This document shows, piece after piece, positions 12,808 through 28,642 of a stretch of 33,100 nucleotides of DNA. The position numbers and the translations under genes are program-made. Each line of letters opens with the position of its first letter. The first letter of the stretch is position 1. The notes under the pieces were generated by a model. That model ran no database searches, was not told the origin of the DNA, and saw only the letters and a list, made by a program, of their open reading frames with translations. This stretch comes from an uncultured Clostridia bacterium (GTDB lineage: Bacteria > Bacillota > Clostridia > TANB77 > CAG-508). The stretch covers positions 1 through 33,100 of the forward strand of contig CAMKSF010000016.1 in assembly GCA_946415375.1 (NCBI GenBank), given 5' to 3'.

Positions 12808-14052
12808 ATGGGAGAAGAAAATTTAAGTCCGTATCAACAGGTTGCATTATCTGCATTACAAGAATTTCATGGAATGAGTTATGAGGAAGCTTTAGCTGAG
12901 GCTAAAGAATGTACAACTCCAGAAAAAATTGCAGAGATGGATAAAAAAATAGAAGCGAAATATTCTATGGATTCAGCTATTTATGGATTATGCTTTGAAT
13001 TAGAATATAAAAATATGCAGTTGGAAAGATGTATTAAACTAGCAGAAGATGGAAAAGAAGCAATAGAAGAAAAAAAGAAAAGTGCTTTGGCTTTTATGTA
13101 CAAAAAACAAATAAAAGCTATGGAACAAGAAGTGGAAGATTATTATAAAACTGCTGCAAACTATGGAGATGTAGATAAAGACTTACCAATTTATAAAGAA
13201 ATGTTTAAATTATTTGAGGGTGAAGATAAAACATTAAGTGATTATGTTAGTGAAGCTATTTATGGAGGAGAAGATATTTCTAAGTTTGTAGAATTACTTA
13301 AAGAATTAAATTTAGATGAAAATGAACTTGTAATAGATGTTTTAGAGCATATTCACTCTAAATGGATTGAACAAGCAGATGAAGATGGCAAATTTTTTAA
13401 TCCAAAAAGAGAAAATAGAAAATTTCAATTTTCAAGAGGTTTGCTTATAGGATTCGAAGAATTTAAAAAAGATTTGCTTTTTGCAAAACCTATATTAGAT
13501 AAACTAGGTATAGAATATACAGAGGAAGGAATAAAAGCATTATATGAAAGTAAGGTTCGAGATTTCATGGAAGGCATTGAATCAAAAGAGGACTTACAGA
13601 AGTATATAATAGATAGAGCAAAAAGACAGTTAGCGTATAAAGGGCTAGAAGAAAATAAAAAAAGAAGATTAGAAGCGCAAACTGATCCAGAAGTTGCTAT
13701 GCAAATTACAGAACAAATATTAGAAAATAATCCGATAATAAGAGATATAATTAAAGAAAAAGAAAATGAAAATAAAAAAGAAGTAAAAAGTATGAAGAAA
13801 ACATCTCTATGGGATAAAGTACGTGCCTTCTTTGTTAGGGAAAATGATAAAGAAGAATCAACAAAAGGTAATGGAGAAAAAACAGAAATTAAGAAGAAAA
13901 GTTTCCGTGAGGATATAAAACATGAATCAAGTGGTAATGAACCAAAGAGTGAAGAACCAAGAGGTAATGAGAGAGAGGATGATAAAGCACTTGATAGTAA
14001 TAGTGAAAACAACAATGATAAAATTCCGGAAGATGAAGATAGAATTGATTAA
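12808..14052 (+). CDS. Uncharacterised acidic, helical 414-residue protein
   Basis: I do not recognise a family. No signal peptide or membrane span is visible. Residues 1-325 are predicted helical and highly charged, opening with LSPYQQVALSALQEFHGMSYEEALAEA, here quoted in overlapping pieces (LSPYQQVALSA, FHGMSYEEALAEA). Residues ~340-414 form a low-complexity tail rich in Glu, Lys, Asn, Asp and Ser, beginning with a basic SLWDKVRAFFVREN segment. The ATG at 12808 has no adjacent ribosome binding site: the strong GAGGAGG is ~37 bases upstream, beyond a small hairpin, and a stop at 12784 limits upstream extension. A clear terminator follows, so it is a single-gene unit. Codon use matches its neighbours. 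Confidence 0.7.
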   Translation: MGEENLSPYQQVALSALQEFHGMSYEEALAEAKECTTPEKIAEMDKKIEAKYSMDSAIYGLCFELEYKNMQLERCIKLAEDGKEAIEEKKKSALAFMYKKQIKAMEQEVEDYYKTAANYGDVDKDLPIYKEMFKLFEGEDKTLSDYVSEAIYGGEDISKFVELLKELNLDENELVIDVLEHIHSKWIEQADEDGKFFNPKRENRKFQFSRGLLIGFEEFKKDLLFAKPILDKLGIEYTEEGIKALYESKVRDFMEGIESKEDLQKYIIDRAKRQLAYKGLEENKKRRLEAQTDPEVAMQITEQILENNPIIRDIIKEKENENKKEVKSMKKTSLWDKVRAFFVRENDKEESTKGNGEKTEIKKKSFREDIKHESSGNEPKSEEPRGNEREDDKALDSNSENNNDKIPEDEDRID

Positions 14053-18633: not shown

Positions 18634-20224
18634 GTGAAGATAAATAAAAAATCAAAAATAAATAGAAAAAGAAATAGTCGGAATTACTCTTATAGCTTTA
18701 GTTATTACTGTTATTGTCCTTCTCATTTTAGCTGGAATATCAATATCAATGCTATCAGGTGATAACTCTATACTAAACCAAGCAGGAAGAGCAAGAGATA
18801 TAACAGGGGAAAAGTCAATTGCAGAAAGAGTACAAATTGCATATTTAGGAGCGCTAGCGAATGGAAAGGGAAATGTCGAAAGAGCAGATTTGTTAACAGA
18901 ACTAAAAAAAGAATTTGGAGAAGATAAAATAAAAGATGGAGATATAGATGGAGCCTTAACCAAAGTAACAATAGACGGAACTGATTATAACTTTGATGGA
19001 AATTCACCTGGAGGTGGAGGAAGTACACATACAGAAACAGTAAATGGAATAGAGGTAGTAGTTCCAATACCTAGTGGATTTACAAAATCAACTGAAACAG
19101 GAGAAACAAGTGTAGCAACTGGTTTAGTTGTAAAAGATTCAAGCAATAATGAGTATGTATGGATACCAGTATTTGAATATGATAGTACAAAATGTACATG
19201 GGGAGCAGATTATACAAATGTAAGAAGTGCAACAGAAGGTTCGTCGGAATACTATACATCAATAGAAACAGCATTAAAGAATTATACAGCAACATATAAA
19301 GATTCAAGTTATACAGATGTATGGTATGGAAATTCTAGTTATGGAAAATATGGATATTATGATGGAACACAATTTGTATATTATACAAATGGAAATATGA
19401 CTCAGGCTGAATATACAGCTCTATATCACGGAATGTTGAAAAGTGTATATGAAAATGGTGGTTTCTATATTGGTAGATATGAAATGGGAATAGCAGTAGT
19501 AGATAATGTAAATGATGCAAGTACAAATACAAGAGTTGCACTTACAGAATATACACCAAGTAATTCAACATCATCTACAACAAATACAGCTTCAACAAGC
19601 GCAGTCTCAATTTCTGGAATGACAGCACCGTTAAGTAAGCAAAATGCGATAGCATATACAAGAATTACTCAATCACAAGCAGAAATGTTAGCTGAGATGT
19701 TAAATTATAGTGGAGTAACAAGCTCTCTTATGTTTGGAGTGCAATGGGATGCAGTATGTGTATATTTAGAACATTTTGGTAAAATAGATAGTAGTGCAAC
19801 AGCAAGTGGAGGAACAAGTTTTGATTCATCATATTTAACAAGTAATAATTATAGTAAACTTTGGGGAAATTATAAAAATGCAACATTTGTAATGAATAGA
19901 GGATTTTTTAGTACAACATATAGTAACACAACAGCAGTAACTTGGAATCAATATACATCTACTGCAAAAGACACGAGTACAGCATGGCTTTGTACAACAG
20001 GAGCATCTGACCAAAATAGAGCGTGTAATATATATGATTTTGCAGGAAATTTAGCTGAATGGACTCTCGAAAGGTATAGCGATGCGATCCGTCCGTGTGT
20101 CTATCGTGGCAGCGGTTTCAGCGGTAGCGGTTATGCCTCTAGCAGGTACGACGATTACACTAACTTCAGTGGTTACGGCCTTTCAGCTAGGCCCTCACTT
20201 TATATAGGTAGCCCTGTAAGCTAA
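18634..20224 (+). pseudogene. Pilin-like FGE/C-type-lectin-fold surface protein, frameshifted at its leader; DGR variable-protein type
   Basis: The main frame (~520 residues) opens with a prepilin-type helix, GITLIALVITVIVLLILAG, common to clostridial surface proteins processed by prepilin peptidase. A variable central part and a C-terminal formylglycine-enzyme/lectin-like fold follow, with NIYDFAGNLAEWTLE and a terminal RPSLYIG. That is the architecture of variable proteins of diversity-generating retroelements. The leader is broken: AAAGGAG then GTG 18634 starts MKINKKSKINRK in one frame, while EIVGITL is in another, open only from 18662 (TAA at 18659). Removing one A from the A5 run at 18666-18670 restores a perfect fusion. 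Mutation, phase variation or assembly error are all possible. Otherwise the first ATG is 18749, inside the helix and without a ribosome binding site. Confidence 0.7.
20060..20224 (+). other. Putative DGR variable region at the 3' end of the pilin-like gene
   Basis: After TGG 20060 base composition changes abruptly: codons such as CTC, GCG, ATC, CGT, CCG, GTC, GGC, TTC and GCC appear in a gene otherwise full of A/T endings. Between 20075 and 20179 about 20 of 35 codons are TAY, AGY, GAY or GGY, exactly what adenine mutagenesis of AAY codons in a template repeat would give. It encodes the ligand-face end of the FGE fold, where known variable regions lie. GGCCT/AGGCC (20177-20193) forms a stem-loop near the 3' end, possibly part of the homing signal. 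No template repeat or reverse transcriptase is in the window. Confidence 0.65.
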
Positions 20225-22282: not shown

Positions 22283-22442
22283 TTTAATTAATGATAGAAT
22301 AATATTTGAATAGTTAAATTTTAAATATAATAAATTTTTTTATAAAAAATGAACCTACATCAAAGCAGAAATATCTAAAAAGTATAAAACAGTTTTGATG
22401 CACAAAAAATACTAATAAACATAAAAGGGGATGGTATAAAAA

Positions 22443-22991
22443 ATGAACATTGAACGAGTTAGGAAGGCTAAAGAGGGAAATGCAGATGAAATAGGCAATA
22501 TTATTATGGAAAATATGCAATCAATGTATAGAGTGGCGTTTAGTATTTTAAAAAATGAAGAAGAAATATATGATGCTATTTCAAACACTACTGTAATTGT
22601 TTTTGAAAAAATAGCTACCCTAAAAAAAGAAGAGTTTTTTAAAACATGGATTACAAGAATCCTAATAAATGAATGCTACAAAATATATAATCAAAACAAA
22701 AAGATTATATATTTAGAAAATTGTAGTCCAGAAACATTAGAAGGAATGCAATTTACTGAAAAAGATAGATTAGACGAAATAGATACACGAAATCTAATAA
22801 AAGGACTTACAAAAGATTTAAAAGAAACAGTAACTTTATATTATTTAGAAGACTTTAGTGTAAAAGAAATTGCAAAAATTTTAGAAATTCCAGAGGGAAC
22901 AGTTAAGTCAAGACTTTCAAGAGCTAGGAAGGATTTAGAAAAAATTCTCATTAAAAATGAAGAAATGGAGAGGAGGGATTTAAATGGATAA
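22443..22991 (+). CDS. ECF-type RNA polymerase sigma factor
   Basis: 182 residues with only regions 2 and 4, as in extracytoplasmic-function sigma factors. Region 2 (about 20-85) reads MQSMYRVAFSILKNEEEIYD, then WITRILINECYKI. Region 4 (about 120-175) has LKETVTLYYLEDFSVKEIAK and the DNA-recognition helix IPEGTVKSRLSRARKDLEK. The next gene begins at 22984, overlapping by 8 bases, so the pair is translationally coupled, as is normal for a sigma and its anti-sigma. GGGGATGG upstream of ATG 22443 is a modest ribosome binding site. The regulon is unknown. Confidence 0.92.
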   Translation: MNIERVRKAKEGNADEIGNIIMENMQSMYRVAFSILKNEEEIYDAISNTTVIVFEKIATLKKEEFFKTWITRILINECYKIYNQNKKIIYLENCSPETLEGMQFTEKDRLDEIDTRNLIKGLTKDLKETVTLYYLEDFSVKEIAKILEIPEGTVKSRLSRARKDLEKILIKNEEMERRDLNG

Positions 22992-25900
22992 TAACGAGTT
23001 AGATAAAATTATTAAAGAAAAATTAAATAATAATATTAAACCATCGAAAGAATTTGAACAAAAAATAGCGCAAAAAATTGAAGAAGAGAAACAAAAAGTA
23101 GAAACAAATAAAAAATTTACAAAATTGCAAGTAGTAAAAAAGACTAACAACTATAGTAAATTAGCAAAGATACTATCTATGGCTGCAGTTGTGATATTAG
23201 TATTTACACTCGGAATGAATTTAAGAACTGCTCCAATTATTGGAGATGAAGCTACAGCTAATTTAATCAGTATTAAAGCAATTGAACCAACAAAATTAGA
23301 GGGTGGAATCGTTGCAAATAATTCTGACTTTACAATTTATGTTGAAGGAGACAACGTAAATGCAGAAGCAGTTCAAAAAAGTGTATATGTTGAGCCTGCT
23401 TTAGATTACACAATAGAAAAAACTTTAAATAAAAATGAATATAAATTAAGATTTAAACAAAATATACCTGATAATACAATTGTAAAATTACAGTACGTAA
23501 AAAATCAGATAACACAAGACAGTTGGGCTTATCAAACATCAAATAAATTTAGTATTACAAAAACATATCCATATAATGGAGCAACAGCAGTTTCAAAAAA
23601 TACAATAATAGATATTGAATTTTCTTATGCATCAGTAAAGGATATAGAAAAATATGTTAAGATCACACCAAAATTAAATGGAACATGGAAACATCTAGGA
23701 AAAATTTGGAGATTTATTCCAAAAGGAGTTTTAGAAAATGGAAGAAAATATACAGTTATAGTTTCTAGACAAATTACTGCTGAGGAGCAGAATTTAGAAA
23801 ATGACTATAGATTTAGCTTTAAAATTGATGATGATAATTCAGAATATGCATATCACAAAAATATATCAATGGATGGTATTATAACTGCAAAAACTAATGA
23901 ATTAATAAAAATTAATTATGATGCTTCTTCAAATGCTGAAATAGGAAAAATAGAAGTTGCAAGATTTACAAGCAAAGAAGACTTTATTGAATATATTGAA
24001 ACTACCAATTATGATAAAAGTGCAAGACATGAAGAAATAAAATTTAACAATATAAAAAATCAAATTTTGGAGTTTAAACAAACATTGCCAAAAGGATATT
24101 ATGTTGCAATAATAAAGAGTAAAAAAGGAAAAGAATTATTTAACTGCCCTATTCAAATAAGTGATATTTCAGTTTATGCAATGGAGACAGAAAGAGATGC
24201 ATTAGTTTGGGTTGCTCAAGGAAATGAGTTAGCAACAAATATAAATGTAGAATATAACGGAAAAAATGTTAAAACAGACAAACAAGGAATTGCAAAATTT
24301 GAAAACATTGCAGACGGATCAGAAAAAGTTAAATATGCAACAGTTGCAGGAGAATTAGTAATTGGATTATTTAACTTTAAGTTAGAAAACTATCCACAAG
24401 CATATATCTATACAGATAGACCTTTATACAAAAACACAGATACAATTAATATTTGGGGAGTTGTACCAAGAAAACTATTTTATGAAAAAATAGAAGAAGA
24501 TAAGTTCTATATTGAACTAAATGAAGAAGGAAAGAAAAGAATAAGTATAGATGAAGATGGAAATTTCACATATAAAATAGATTTAAATAATCATATAGAT
24601 ATTGATTTTGCAAGCGTTAGTCTATATTATAAAGATACTGAAATAGCAAACAGATATATACAAATTCAAAATTATGAATTGCAAAACTATACCTATGAAG
24701 CAACAACTAATAAAAATTATGGATTTGCAGGAGATAAAATAAACTTTGATGTAAAAGTAAAACATATAACAGGACTATTAGTTCCGAATAAAAATGTAAC
24801 TGCAAAATATGAAGGAAAAATATATAGAGCAAAAACAGGAGAGGATGGAATTGCACATTTTACAATTACATTAAAAGAAGAGGATGATACAGAATATACT
24901 GAACTAAGATATCAAGGAGTAAGTATATATAATGGCGATGACATAGAATATACAGATGCAGAAGTATATTTACCAACATATCTTTTATTAAGAGATGTGT
25001 ATGCAAAAGATGAATTTGTAGGAGATAATAAATATAAAGCAACATTGTATAAACTTGATACAAATAAAAATGCAAATATTGAATATGAGGCAAAAGAACT
25101 ATATAACGGAACTTATGAGACAGATGTTGAAATAGATTTAGTAGAAAGTGTTTATACAGCAGTTCAAACTGGAGAAGAATATAATGAATATACAAAACAA
25201 ATGGAGCCGACATATGAAAGAGTAAAATCAGATAATAGAACTAAAATAAGAACAATTAAATCAACAAATGGAGTAATAGAATTCGATAAAAATGAGATAA
25301 AAACAAAAGAAGATACAGAATTAATATCATATTATTATGAACTTGAATTTAAATTTAAAGACTCAAAAGGAAGAAATATAAAAGAAACAGAATCAATATA
25401 TAAAAACTGGTATAATGAATCTCAATATGGATATAATACAGTAACTGAAATTGATTCAAGTGGAGATAGAATATGGGAAAATTCTGAAAAAGACTTTAAT
25501 GATGATTATTATTCATATAGATATTTATGGGATTTTGATTATTCTAAGTTTGCAGTAGGCGAAAAAGTAAACTTTAAATTACAAGAAGCAACTACTACTG
25601 GACTTAAAGATATAGAGAATAATGGAAAAATATTAAATATATTCTTTAAAGAAAATATAGAAGATACAAGTATATTAACAGAAAACAACTTCAGCAGGGA
25701 ATACACAGATAAAGACTTCCCAGGATTTAAAATGACATCAGCATATTTTAAAGATGGTAAATTCTATAGAATGCCTAATAAGTATTTTGACTTTAATGAA
25801 GAAAAAAATAAGGTTGATATAGATATCACAACAGATAAAGAGCAATATAAACCAGGAGACACTGTTACGGTAAATATTAAAACAACAAAAGACGGAAAAG

Positions 25901-27786
25901 GTGTTAAATCATTTGTAAATATAAGTGTTGTAAATGAAGCAGTATTTGAATTGCAAGAAGATATGACAAATATATTAGAATTGATTTATTCGGATAAAAA
26001 TCTAGCTGTATATACATTTTCAAGCTATTTTGATGATATAAGATCAATTAGTGGTGGAAAAGGAGGAGGAGATGGCGAACCAAGAGGAGATTTTGCCGAC
26101 ACTGCTCATTTTGAAACTATCCGTACAGACAGAAATGGAATAGCAAAAATAGAATTCAAATTACCTGATAATGTTACAACATATAGGATAACAGCACAAT
26201 CAGCAAATGAGGATTTAGAAATAGGAGTAAATACAAAACAGATAACTTCAAAATTGGATTTCTTTGTTCAATCAGTTGAACCAAGAGGAATTAAAACAGA
26301 TGATGATTTAGTATTAAATGCAACTTCTATTGCAGAAAAAAAATATGATGTTGAATATGAATTTACTATAAAAGAACTAAATAAAACTTTGACAGCAAAG
26401 GGTAAAACAAATAGTTTAGTAACAGTTAATTTTGGAAAACTACCATTAGGAATATATACAGCAATAATAAAAGGAAAACATGGAGACAAACAAGATGCAA
26501 TAGAATATAAGTTTAACGTTGTAAAAACTAGTCAAGAAGTTAAAACAAAAACAACATTGGATATAAATACTGATACAAAAATCAAGCCATCAAAAAATCC
26601 AATTGTATTAGAAATATATAACAAGAAGATGGAAAAATATGTAGAGTATATGGACTTTATAGAAACGACACCTACTGAAAGATTAGATACACAGATAGCA
26701 TATAATGAAATACAGAATTTAAAGAATAAGTATTATGGAACTGAGATTAATTCTGTAAACAAACTAAATATGGAAATATATCAAGCAGAAGGAGGAAAAC
26801 TAAGAAATATAAGAAGCGGAAAAGGAGATTTAGTTTTAACAGCATTGACAACATACTATGCAAGAGAATATACAAAGGATAACGCTTTAGAAGAATTAGG
26901 AAAAGATGATAATATAGTTGAATACTATTTGTGTTTAGCAGCAAAACAGGAACCAGTTTTACAAGACTTAGAATACTTAAAAGAAGAAAATGATATTTCA
27001 AATTATAACAAATTACTTATAACTCTAAGTTATGAATTTATGGGAGACTACAAAAATGCAAAAGAATTATATAGTACAATATCTTTAACAGATGCAGAGG
27101 CAAAGCAATACAAATCAATTGTTGCTATAATAGAGACATTTATAAACAAAGATAAAGTTACAGAGAAAATTGATGATGTAATTAAAATTAATCCTGCAGA
27201 TGAGTATATAAGATTTGCTATACTATCATTCTTCCAAAATAATTCAAACGAAATTGGAAAAGAAGAAACAGTAAAGGTTAAAACACCAAATGGAGAACAA
27301 ACAGAAAAAATAAATGGTGTTCAAATAAAAACAATAACACTAAATAATGAAGATTTATCAGAAATTAGTTTTGAGACAGAATCAAATGATATGAAGGTTT
27401 CATACTATTATCAAACAATGCTAGAAGAAATTTCAGGAAGTAATATTACAAAAGATATTAAGATTAGCTTAACTGGAAACTATAAAGTTGGAAGTACAGT
27501 AAAACTTAAAATTGAATTTAGTGGAAACTATGAGGGAGATTTAAGAATTGCTTTACCAAACTCATTAAGACTTTCAAAGGCACAAGATGAAATAAATGAG
27601 AATTCTAGATACTATATACAAAATAATATAATAAACTATTTAACAATTTATAAAACTAAAAAATGTCAATCAATTACATTACCATTAACAGTTATAAACC
27701 AAGGAAGCTATAAATTTGAGAATATAGTATGTAATGTAGATGGTAAATATCATATTTCAAATTCTCTAAAATTGAATTTTAAATAA
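22984..27786 (+). CDS. Transmembrane anti-sigma factor fused to a thioester-less alpha-2-macroglobulin ectodomain
   Basis: 1600 residues. Residues 1-60 are a charged cytoplasmic domain (LDKIIKEKLNNNIKPSKEFE) like the N-termini of clostridial ECF anti-sigma factors. One span lies at about 61-80 (AKILSMAAVVILVFTLGMNL). The rest is extracytoplasmic and built of bacterial A2M (YfaS-like) domains: IYTDRPLYKNTDTINIWG (about 475-492, MG2-type), EQYKPGDTVTVN (about 953-964), a Gly-rich bait-like loop GGKGGGDGEPRGD (about 1024-1036), and LPDNVTTYRITAQ opening the next domain. Where A2Ms carry CxEQ, this has F1225-I-E1227-T, so no thioester can form. The layout suggests an outside sensor whose cleavage or deformation frees the sigma factor. 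The fusion is seen directly; the mechanism is inference. Confidence 0.85.
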   Translation: MDNNELDKIIKEKLNNNIKPSKEFEQKIAQKIEEEKQKVETNKKFTKLQVVKKTNNYSKLAKILSMAAVVILVFTLGMNLRTAPIIGDEATANLISIKAIEPTKLEGGIVANNSDFTIYVEGDNVNAEAVQKSVYVEPALDYTIEKTLNKNEYKLRFKQNIPDNTIVKLQYVKNQITQDSWAYQTSNKFSITKTYPYNGATAVSKNTIIDIEFSYASVKDIEKYVKITPKLNGTWKHLGKIWRFIPKGVLENGRKYTVIVSRQITAEEQNLENDYRFSFKIDDDNSEYAYHKNISMDGIITAKTNELIKINYDASSNAEIGKIEVARFTSKEDFIEYIETTNYDKSARHEEIKFNNIKNQILEFKQTLPKGYYVAIIKSKKGKELFNCPIQISDISVYAMETERDALVWVAQGNELATNINVEYNGKNVKTDKQGIAKFENIADGSEKVKYATVAGELVIGLFNFKLENYPQAYIYTDRPLYKNTDTINIWGVVPRKLFYEKIEEDKFYIELNEEGKKRISIDEDGNFTYKIDLNNHIDIDFASVSLYYKDTEIANRYIQIQNYELQNYTYEATTNKNYGFAGDKINFDVKVKHITGLLVPNKNVTAKYEGKIYRAKTGEDGIAHFTITLKEEDDTEYTELRYQGVSIYNGDDIEYTDAEVYLPTYLLLRDVYAKDEFVGDNKYKATLYKLDTNKNANIEYEAKELYNGTYETDVEIDLVESVYTAVQTGEEYNEYTKQMEPTYERVKSDNRTKIRTIKSTNGVIEFDKNEIKTKEDTELISYYYELEFKFKDSKGRNIKETESIYKNWYNESQYGYNTVTEIDSSGDRIWENSEKDFNDDYYSYRYLWDFDYSKFAVGEKVNFKLQEATTTGLKDIENNGKILNIFFKENIEDTSILTENNFSREYTDKDFPGFKMTSAYFKDGKFYRMPNKYFDFNEEKNKVDIDITTDKEQYKPGDTVTVNIKTTKDGKGVKSFVNISVVNEAVFELQEDMTNILELIYSDKNLAVYTFSSYFDDIRSISGGKGGGDGEPRGDFADTAHFETIRTDRNGIAKIEFKLPDNVTTYRITAQSANEDLEIGVNTKQITSKLDFFVQSVEPRGIKTDDDLVLNATSIAEKKYDVEYEFTIKELNKTLTAKGKTNSLVTVNFGKLPLGIYTAIIKGKHGDKQDAIEYKFNVVKTSQEVKTKTTLDINTDTKIKPSKNPIVLEIYNKKMEKYVEYMDFIETTPTERLDTQIAYNEIQNLKNKYYGTEINSVNKLNMEIYQAEGGKLRNIRSGKGDLVLTALTTYYAREYTKDNALEELGKDDNIVEYYLCLAAKQEPVLQDLEYLKEENDISNYNKLLITLSYEFMGDYKNAKELYSTISLTDAEAKQYKSIVAIIETFINKDKVTEKIDDVIKINPADEYIRFAILSFFQNNSNEIGKEETVKVKTPNGEQTEKINGVQIKTITLNNEDLSEISFETESNDMKVSYYYQTMLEEISGSNITKDIKISLTGNYKVGSTVKLKIEFSGNYEGDLRIALPNSLRLSKAQDEINENSRYYIQNNIINYLTIYKTKKCQSITLPLTVINQGSYKFENIVCNVDGKYHISNSLKLNFK

Positions 27787-27940: not shown

Positions 27941-28642
27941 ATGTTTTCTAATATATGTTTAGCAGGCTTTTTTGAGTTTTTGAAAACAGCTATCTTTGTT
28001 GTAGGATATATTTCAGGAGGAACACTTTTTCCTGAACCATTAAGTGCTGAAGAAGAAAAAAATGCTTTATTAAAAATGAAACAAGGTGATGAAGAGGCAA
28101 GAAATCTTCTTATAGAAAGAAATTTAAGATTGGTTGCACATGTGTGTAAGAAATATGCGAATACTAATGTTGAACAAGATGATTTATTATCAATAGGGAC
28201 AATAGGTTTGATTAAAGGAATAAAAAGTTTTGATATAGATAAAGGTGCGAGACTTTCTACATATGTTTCAAGATGTATAGATAATGAGATTTTAATGTAT
28301 TTAAGATCTATAAAAAAATTAAATGCAGAAGTATATTTAAATGATACAATTGGAAAAGATAAAGATGATAATGTGGTAACATTAGAAGAAGTATTAGAAA
28401 ATGATGAGAAAAGCATTGAAGAATTGGTTGATTTGAAAATGAAAATAAAGAAATTATATAAAAAAATGAAAGAAGTTCTAAAAGATAGAGAAAGAACAAT
28501 AATTGAGCTAAGATTTGGATTAAATGGCCAAAAACCAAAAACTCAACACGAGATTGCTTCTTCTATGGGAATTTCACGTTCTTATGTTTCAAGAATTGAA
28601 ACAAAGGCAATTGGAAAATTAAGTGAGGAGTTTAAAGAATAG
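27941..28642 (+). CDS. sigK: RNA polymerase sporulation sigma factor SigK (pro-form)
   Basis: 233 residues, continuous, so not interrupted by a skin-type element. The first ~20 residues are the hydrophobic pro-sequence (FFEFLKTAIFVVGYISGG), which keeps the factor inactive at the membrane until SpoIVFB-type cleavage. FPEPLSAEEE then follows, as in Bacillus and clostridial SigK. Region 2 includes ARNLLIERNLRLVAHVCKKY and DDLLSIGTIGLIKGIKSFD. Region 4 ends HEIASSMGISRSYVSRIETK. It directs late mother-cell transcription for coat and cortex formation. Its ribosome binding site lies in a hairpin overlapping a sporulation-type promoter. Confidence 0.93.
   Translation: MFSNICLAGFFEFLKTAIFVVGYISGGTLFPEPLSAEEEKNALLKMKQGDEEARNLLIERNLRLVAHVCKKYANTNVEQDDLLSIGTIGLIKGIKSFDIDKGARLSTYVSRCIDNEILMYLRSIKKLNAEVYLNDTIGKDKDDNVVTLEEVLENDEKSIEELVDLKMKIKKLYKKMKEVLKDRERTIIELRFGLNGQKPKTQHEIASSMGISRSYVSRIETKAIGKLSEEFKE

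What the first reader, a model, noticed from the sequence alone, without database searches (positions are those of the whole stretch)
22443..27786. ECF sigma factor coupled to an anti-sigma/alpha-2-macroglobulin fusion
The 8-base overlap and the short cytoplasmic domain plus single span are typical of sigma/anti-sigma pairs. The ~1500-residue ectodomain is A2M-like, with a Gly-rich bait-like loop (about 1020-1045) but no thioester Cys (FIET in place of CxEQ). Established: bacterial A2Ms trap or sense proteases, and anti-sigma factors are released by regulated proteolysis. Inference: a host or competitor protease cutting the bait could change conformation and trigger intramembrane cleavage. I know of no described system with this fusion.
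Basis: partly seen in the sequence, partly recalled or inferred. Interest (0 to 1): 0.8.

Follow-up and report, generated by a model that had tools for sequence, protein, structure and literature searches.

The report
Protease-trap-like sensor fused to anti-sigma factor
A gut Clostridia-type bacterium and several of its relatives carry a gene switch whose membrane-spanning control protein has, outside the cell, a whole protein resembling the immune protease trap alpha-2-macroglobulin, which suggests (but does not yet show) that the cell reads an attack on this trap as a signal to change its envelope.

Summary
The finding is real. An ECF sigma gene (22443-22991) overlaps by 8 bases a 1600-residue protein with a 56-residue cytoplasmic anti-sigma domain, one membrane span and an alpha-2-macroglobulin (A2M) ectodomain. 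Pfam, profile and fold searches all return A2Ms. The thioester is absent. The same pair occurs in 9 of 210 genomes of the genus. (1) One relative has exchanged sigma and anti-sigma domain together for those of an ordinary pair while keeping the A2M ectodomain, which ties the N-terminus to its sigma. (2) All nine ECF genes carry a conserved promoter, GAAC[CT]-N18-TCTA (N19 in one), so the pair is probably autoregulated. (3) The same promoter type precedes a Dlt-like envelope-modification operon in three of the four genomes found with it, and a VanW gene in two; C. difficile sigma-V partly controls dlt. Most likely this is a sigma-V/RsiV-like receptor circuit whose sensor is a thioester-less A2M, with regulated intramembrane proteolysis releasing sigma. 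That a protease cutting the bait is the trigger remains inference: the Gly-rich bait position is short, conserved and poor in cleavage sites. No description of such a fusion was found in the papers searched. New variant of a known kind.

The parts
22350..22378 (+). Conserved ECF-type promoter TGAACC-N18-TCTAA, 64 bases before the ECF start codon (probable autoregulation)
   Evidence: Only match in the window; 0.05 expected from shuffles; same element upstream of 9 of 9 fusion-linked ECF genes, spacer 18 (19 in one)
22443..22991 (+). ECF sigma factor, 182 aa, TIGR02954/SigV-like
22971..22977 (+). Shine-Dalgarno-like AGGAGGG inside the 3' end of the ECF gene
   Evidence: Read from the sequence
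22984..22991 (+). 8-base overlap of the two reading frames
22984..27786 (+). Anti-sigma/alpha-2-macroglobulin fusion protein, 1600 aa
22984..23151 (+). Cytoplasmic anti-sigma domain, residues 1-56 (predicted helices 3-14 and 22-41, low confidence)
   Evidence: Profile match to 25 non-A2M anti-sigma N-termini: hhalign probability 80.6, E 1.3e-5; helices
23152..23223 (+). Single transmembrane span, residues 57-80
   Evidence: Hydropathy
23224..23283 (+). Juxtamembrane stalk, residues 81-100; candidate signal-peptidase motif ATA at 90-92 not conserved
23545..23823 (+). Ig-like/MG-like domain (Big_5), residues 188-280
24400..24543 (+). MG2 domain match, residues 473-520
25537..25953 (+). A2M bait-region-domain family match (A2M_BRD), residues 852-990
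26053..26091 (+). Gly-rich loop at the bait position, residues 1024-1036
26107..26349 (+). A2M family domain (PF00207), residues 1042-1122
   Evidence: PDB A2M profile match at the same place
26623..27243 (+). All-helical domain in the thioester-domain position, residues about 1214-1420
   Evidence: Secondary structure of the model; fold match to the MG7-to-C-terminus fragment of E. coli A2M 4ziu, Z 12.3, rmsd 7.1 over 494 residues
26656..26667 (+). FIET in place of CxEQ, residues 1225-1228
27445..27783 (+). C-terminal beta domain (CTMG-like), residues about 1488-1600

Best explanation
A sigma-V/RsiV-like receptor circuit with a new sensor. At rest the cytoplasmic N-terminus of the 1600-aa protein holds the ECF sigma at the membrane. 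The ectodomain is a thioester-less (type II-like) A2M on the cell surface. A change in it, most probably caused by an attacking protease or by a ligand that A2M captures, exposes the juxtamembrane stalk to a site-1 protease. The RseP/RasP-type protease then cuts within the membrane and sigma is released. Sigma switches on its own operon from a GAAC[CT]-N18-TCTA promoter, together with a small set of envelope-modification genes: a Dlt-like adenylation/carrier/MBOAT/decarboxylase operon and, in some species, VanW. Shown by sequence: the gene pair and its conservation, the topology, the A2M fold, the missing thioester, homology of the N-terminus to anti-sigma domains, joint exchange of sigma and anti-sigma domain in one genome, the conserved promoter, and promoter-like sites before the envelope operons. 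Inferred: sequestration, proteolysis, the trigger, and control of the target genes.
For: Pair conserved in 9 of 210 genus genomes, each with ECF upstream. Family-wide, related ECF genes are followed by single-span anti-sigma-like proteins with the same kind of short N-terminal domain and other ectodomains: 30 of 31 loci read had such a downstream ORF, with a predicted span near the N-terminus in all 30 (one of the 30 is the window itself). Fusion N-termini against 1000 shuffles each: no shuffle as high for 6 of 9; 1, 6 and 23 of 1000 for the other three. Cassette exchange: in G055 (L028) the ECF is 78% and the cytoplasmic domain 76% identical to an ordinary pair in G058 (L134), against 37% and 38% to the window, while its ectodomain is 54% identical to the window's. 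Trees agree: the 9 fusion ECFs form one clade in 0% of 200 bootstraps, while the L028 ectodomain falls inside the fusion group (97/99). Promoter 9 of 9. Dlt-like operon: site present in G000, G150 and, as GGAACC-N18-TCTAA with CG before TCTAA like its exchanged sigma's own promoter, in G055; absent in G058. VanW: G150 and G058. RseP family over cut-off in the own genome. C. difficile sigma-V partly controls dlt and RsiV is cut by RIP (PMC9044953, passages read). The thioester-less A2M MagD still traps a protease (PMC5764988, passages).
Against: No experiment. The bait-position loop is short, nearly constant and Gly/Asp-rich, unlike a broad bait. No conserved site-1 motif. The juxtamembrane DUF4179 region reported to guard RsiV from signal peptidase (PMC6066255, passages) was not detected in the fusion at E up to 1; but it is weak or undetected in ordinary relatives too (listed in 3 of 6 scanned). 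Genome-wide counts of the first promoter pattern are no higher than its reversed control. The base before TCTA differs between the promoters of two near-identical ordinary sigmas (L067, L069), so the promoter switch in G055 is only suggestive. The Dlt-like operon is missing in five of nine fusion genomes at high identity.
Confidence: 0.6

Rival explanations
1. The A2M ectodomain is a receptor for a non-protease ligand (for example lysozyme, an antimicrobial peptide or a cell-wall fragment), as RsiV is for lysozyme; no bait cleavage is involved.
For: RsiV, the anti-sigma of a sigma in the same broad similarity range (SigV model 92.8 bits), binds lysozyme (PMC9044953 and PMC6066255, passages). 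The loop at the bait position is short, conserved and Gly-rich; no thioester. The candidate targets are envelope genes.
Against: The A2M architecture, including the bait-domain and MG7 families, is kept, which would be much scaffold for a simple binder. The thioester-less A2M MagD still reacts to bait cutting (PMC5764988, passages).
Confidence: 0.28
2. The protein is mainly a protease trap or envelope-protection protein, and the anti-sigma domain only meters its own amount (feedback), so consumption of the trap by proteases raises its own synthesis.
For: Own-operon promoter conserved in 9 of 9; stand-alone membrane-anchored A2Ms without anti-sigma domain exist in related genera and families (L053, L008, L009).
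Against: Promoter-like sites also lie before other envelope operons. The trap itself would be destroyed by the proteolysis that signals.
Confidence: 0.2
3. The N-terminus is not a working anti-sigma domain and the overlap with an ECF gene is incidental.
For: Residues 1-56 of the window give no anti-sigma Pfam hit, and the profile match is modest (hhalign probability 80.6).
Against: Conserved pairing in nine genomes, joint exchange of sigma and N-terminus and the same gene order with homologous N-termini in ordinary ECF loci.
Confidence: 0.06

Closest known systems
Sigma-V/RsiV (B. subtilis, C. difficile)
   Same: ECF sigma next to a single-span anti-sigma gene, own-operon promoter, dlt-type envelope target, site-2 protease encoded
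   Different: Ectodomain is a 1500-residue A2M instead of the small lysozyme-binding ectodomain; no DUF4179 detected at the membrane; the SigV family model is not reached (92.8 against 190 bits)
Type II bacterial A2M (MagD of Pseudomonas aeruginosa)
   Same: A2M fold without the CxEQ thioester, membrane-associated (PMC5764988 passages)
   Different: Here fused to an anti-sigma domain and paired with an ECF sigma; no mag-like six-gene neighbourhood noticed around the nine loci (by eye)
Type I bacterial A2M (E. coli YfhM/ECAM)
   Same: Best fold match (5a42, E 5.3e-39); bait-region domain, MG7, helical domain in the thioester-domain position, C-terminal beta domain
   Different: No thioester; anchored by an N-terminal span that carries a cytoplasmic domain
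Ordinary ECF/anti-sigma pairs of the same bacterial family (e.g. L134, L090)
   Same: Sigma, promoter type and cytoplasmic domain
   Different: Non-A2M ectodomains, some with DUF4179

Membership tests
ECF (group 4) sigma-70 factor | Regions 2 and 4 only, ECF superfamily model over its cut-off | tested here: met
   Sigma70_r2, Sigma70_r4_2; TIGR02937 73.9 against 42.9 bits
SigV equivalog | NCBIfam SigV model over its cut-off | tested here: not met
   NF053879 92.8 against 190 bits; so works like, not filed as
ECF30 group | Placement by the published ECF classification models | not testable with these tools
   No ECF group models in the libraries at hand
Single-span ECF anti-sigma factor | Gene next to or overlapping the sigma gene | tested here: met
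   8-base overlap; adjacent in 9 of 9 genomes
Single-span ECF anti-sigma factor | Cytoplasmic N-terminal anti-sigma domain, one span | tested here: met
   by homology and hydropathy only
Single-span ECF anti-sigma factor | Binds and inhibits its sigma | not testable with these tools
   Needs a binding or reporter test
Alpha-2-macroglobulin family | MG domains, bait-region domain and MG7 (PF07703, PF00207, PF01835) | tested here: met
   All three over their cut-offs; fold searches
Alpha-2-macroglobulin family | Helical thioester domain between CUB segments | tested here: inconclusive
   All-helical stretch at the right place in a low-confidence model; no Pfam thioester-domain hit listed at E up to 1
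Type I (thioester) A2M | CxEQ motif | tested here: not met
   F[IV][EQ] at the aligned place in 10 of 10
Type II A2M of the mag type | Six-gene mag operon | tested here: inconclusive
   No such partners noticed among the ORFs around the nine loci, read by eye; most ORFs were not searched against a family library
Type II A2M of the mag type | Protease trapping without thioester | not testable with these tools
   Needs purified protein

The most novel reading that the evidence does not exclude
An A2M used as a signalling receptor: a protease cutting the surface A2M is itself the signal, turning the widespread protease-trap fold into a switch that releases an ECF sigma and recoats the envelope (Dlt-like and VanW genes), with sigma and anti-sigma domain exchangeable as a cassette behind a fixed A2M sensor.
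Probability: 0.4. Interest if true: 0.88.

Novelty: new variant of a known kind. Interest (0 to 1): 0.72.

Why it matters
Bacterial A2Ms are known as traps; a role as receptor in transcriptional signalling would be new and would give a direct route by which gut bacteria could sense attack on their surface. It also offers a natural experiment: sigma plus anti-sigma domain were exchanged while the sensor stayed, so sensor and output can be separated in tests. The predicted Dlt-like target makes the circuit directly testable with a reporter.

Tried and rejected
Considered and set aside: (a) chance overlap or assembly error: rejected, since nine genomes agree. (b) Large regulon from pattern counts: TGAACC-N17..19-TCTAA is no more frequent than its reversed control in nine genomes. 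(c) A strict base before TCTA marking each sigma: weakened by siblings L067 and L069. (d) A conserved signal-peptidase site: not found. (e) Matches to the first 200 residues in G454 are pilin-like proteins matched through the membrane stretch, not anti-sigma factors. (f) CGEQ in L030 at 1159 lies outside the thioester place. (g) The ORF before L053's A2M that a script labelled ECF is a thioredoxin-like protein. (h) The model of residues 1-620 matches A2M/complement but also generic Ig strings, so I rest on the C-terminal model.

My error: one search used a spacer one base too long; it was kept as an off-by-one control. Sites outside open frames with a start codon within 160 bases: with the right spacer 16 of 37 places, 7 of these the fusions' own ECF promoters, so 9 of 30 others; with the wrong spacer 2 of 24, one of them G108's own ECF promoter, so 1 of 23 others (one-sided Fisher p 0.018). 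One search counts one place twice (L229 and L130); two of its places (L200, L130) were added because already known, and five others were fetched later to complete the set.

Rows dropped: L074, L081, L089, L054 from the anti-sigma profile, and the window's own row (L087); L088 had no ECF hit by BLAST. L002-L007 appear to be the same genomes as six of the eight G-handle relatives (matching protein and contig lengths), so I do not count them again.
Full report
WHAT IS THERE. Window 22443-22991 codes for a 182-aa ECF sigma factor. It overlaps by 8 bases a 1600-aa gene, 22984-27786, which has an AGGAGGG ribosome-site-like stretch at 22971-22977. The large protein has 56 residues before its only predicted span, 57-80, then about 1520 residues outside. 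Pfam finds A2M_BRD, A2M (PF00207), MG2 and Big_5 over their cut-offs. A single-sequence search of the PDB finds nothing at E up to 1, but a six-sequence profile finds human A2M at E 1.4e-5 and, weakly, E. coli YfhM (0.12). The AlphaFold model of residues 401-1600 is poor overall (mean pLDDT 56.6, pTM 0.34). Even so, all 50 listed Foldseek matches are A2M, complement or close relatives, led by E. coli A2M (5a42, E 5.3e-39). VIA-align gives Z 12.3-12.7 for the bacterial A2Ms 5a42, 4u4j and 4ziu (rmsd 9.7, 7.8 and 7.1 over 671, 607 and 494 residues). An all-helical stretch near residues 1214-1420 sits between beta segments, where the thioester domain should be. Near its start FIET replaces CxEQ. 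All ten aligned proteins (nine fusions and L053) have F[IV][EQ] there, and ten ORFs of more distant stand-alone A2Ms from the order (some of them pieces of one gene) have no CxEQ at all. The lineage is therefore thioester-less.

HOW WIDESPREAD. In the genus, 9 of 210 genomes (own included) carry it, all with an ECF gene directly upstream. In 385 genomes sampled from the order, 18 match the first 200 residues: the own genome and seven further fusion genomes of the same genus, one stand-alone A2M in another genus of the family (G287), distant A2Ms in other families, an ordinary anti-sigma N-terminus (G399) and pilin-like proteins (G454). L053 (from G287) starts at the span, has no anti-sigma domain and no ECF gene. 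It falls among the fusions in the ectodomain tree, place unresolved, so loss or gain of the anti-sigma part cannot be decided. The named records come from gut-type samples by their titles (for example goat omasum, 'Lapin').

IS THE N-TERMINUS AN ANTI-SIGMA DOMAIN? Related ECF genes are found in 213 of 292 family genomes. I read 31 loci. In 30 a downstream ORF starts between 62 bases before and 32 bases after the ECF stop; several overlap by exactly 8 bases, and all 30 have a span near the N-terminus. One of the 30 is the window itself. A profile of 25 non-A2M N-termini matches the fusion N-termini (hhalign probability 80.6, E 1.3e-5). No shuffle of 1000 reaches the score in 6 of 9 fusions, while 1, 6 and 23 shuffles do in L031, L026 and L025. 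The best evidence is an exchange. In G055 (L028) the ECF and the cytoplasmic domain are 78% and 76% identical to an ordinary pair in G058 (L134), but only 37% and 38% to the window's, while the ectodomain is 54% identical to the window's. The ECF tree excludes L028 from the clade of the other eight (no bootstrap tree of 200 joins all nine), and the ectodomain tree places it with the window, L024, L025 and L026 (97/99). Sigma and anti-sigma domain have moved together behind a conserved A2M sensor. The exact order of events remains open.

PROMOTER AND CANDIDATE TARGETS. Upstream of all nine ECF genes lies [TA]GAAC[CT]-N18-TCTA (N19 in one) in otherwise unlike sequence; shuffled upstream regions contain it in 0-1% of cases. 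In the window it is 22350-22378. The same element occurs before 11 of 27 ordinary ECF genes. Genome-wide counts do not exceed the reversed control, but position does. With the right spacer, 9 of 30 non-ECF sites lie outside open frames with a start codon within 160 bases; with a spacer one base longer, 1 of 23 (p 0.018, one-sided). Among them: G000 and G150 before a Dlt-like operon; G150 and G058 before a VanW gene, followed in G150 by a DltA-like gene. The Dlt-like operon holds an AMP ligase (DltA subfamily model 291 bits against a cut-off of 476, so DltA-like only), a PLP decarboxylase, a 76-aa carrier, an MBOAT protein (DltB model 167.5 against 375) and a 325-aa membrane protein. It is present at 75% identity or more in 4 of 26 genomes tested, all fusion carriers (4 of 9; 0 of 17 others). 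Three of the four are close relatives, so this is not independent evidence. G058's copy lacks the site. In G055, with the exchanged sigma, the operon has GGAACC-N18-TCTAA preceded by CG, as in that sigma's own promoter. This is suggestive, but A and G before TCTA are both seen at two near-identical ordinary sigmas (L067, L069).

HOW IT PROBABLY WORKS. In C. difficile, lysozyme causes RsiV to be cut at site 1, probably by signal peptidase, and at site 2 by RasP, freeing sigma-V, which partly controls dltABCD (PMC9044953, passages read). Here the layout is the same, and an RseP-family protease is present (TIGR00054 219.4 against 147.55 bits). The sensor differs. In E. coli A2M, bait cleavage untethers a segment and the thioester domain shifts by 36 angstroms (PMC4498604, passages); MagD traps a protease without a thioester (PMC5764988, passages). 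I infer that capture or cutting of the ectodomain exposes the 13-26-residue stalk to a site-1 protease. Against a simple bait: the loop at 1024-1036 is short, Gly/Asp-rich and almost constant among species; its one Arg is shared with stand-alone A2Ms, so it may be structural. No site-1 motif is conserved. The DUF4179 region proposed to guard RsiV (PMC6066255, passages) was not detected.

NOVELTY. Searches of the held library for alpha-2-macroglobulin with anti-sigma factor and ECF (0 papers), macroglobulin with anti-sigma (3 papers; passages unrelated) and macroglobulin with extracytoplasmic function (3 papers: listing only, except PMC5063857 read) gave no such fusion. Subscription papers are largely not held. 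I rate it a new variant of a known kind: an ECF/anti-sigma receptor with an A2M sensor.

Noticed in passing
L200 3015-8844 (G000 contig 44): Dlt-like operon that includes a PLP decarboxylase of the LysA/exosortase-associated type between ligase and carrier; what is attached to the envelope is unknown.
   Followed up: partly
L130 4472-6811 (G150 contig 20): VanW gene followed by a DltA-like ligase, with a sigma-type promoter before VanW; VanW reading frames in G158, G186 and G013 hold stops.
   Followed up: partly
L088 139-2016: In the window's own genome an ECF-like N-terminus is part of a 625-aa protein, perhaps a sigma fused to its own regulator.
   Followed up: no
L053 4799-9421: Stand-alone membrane-anchored A2M without anti-sigma domain in another genus, next to CcdA/thioredoxin-like genes (names by eye).
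   Followed up: partly
L095 1471-2208: RseP-family protease only 245 aa long; Pfam lists the peptidase domain alone and no PDZ domain.
   Followed up: no
window 27941-28642: A second sigma-70 gene (looks like a sporulation sigma, from memory) directly downstream; the same neighbour follows the fusion in L024 and L025.
   Followed up: no
window 12808-14052 and 18749-20224: Two long ORFs (414 and 491 aa) without a Pfam match at 1e-6.
   Followed up: no
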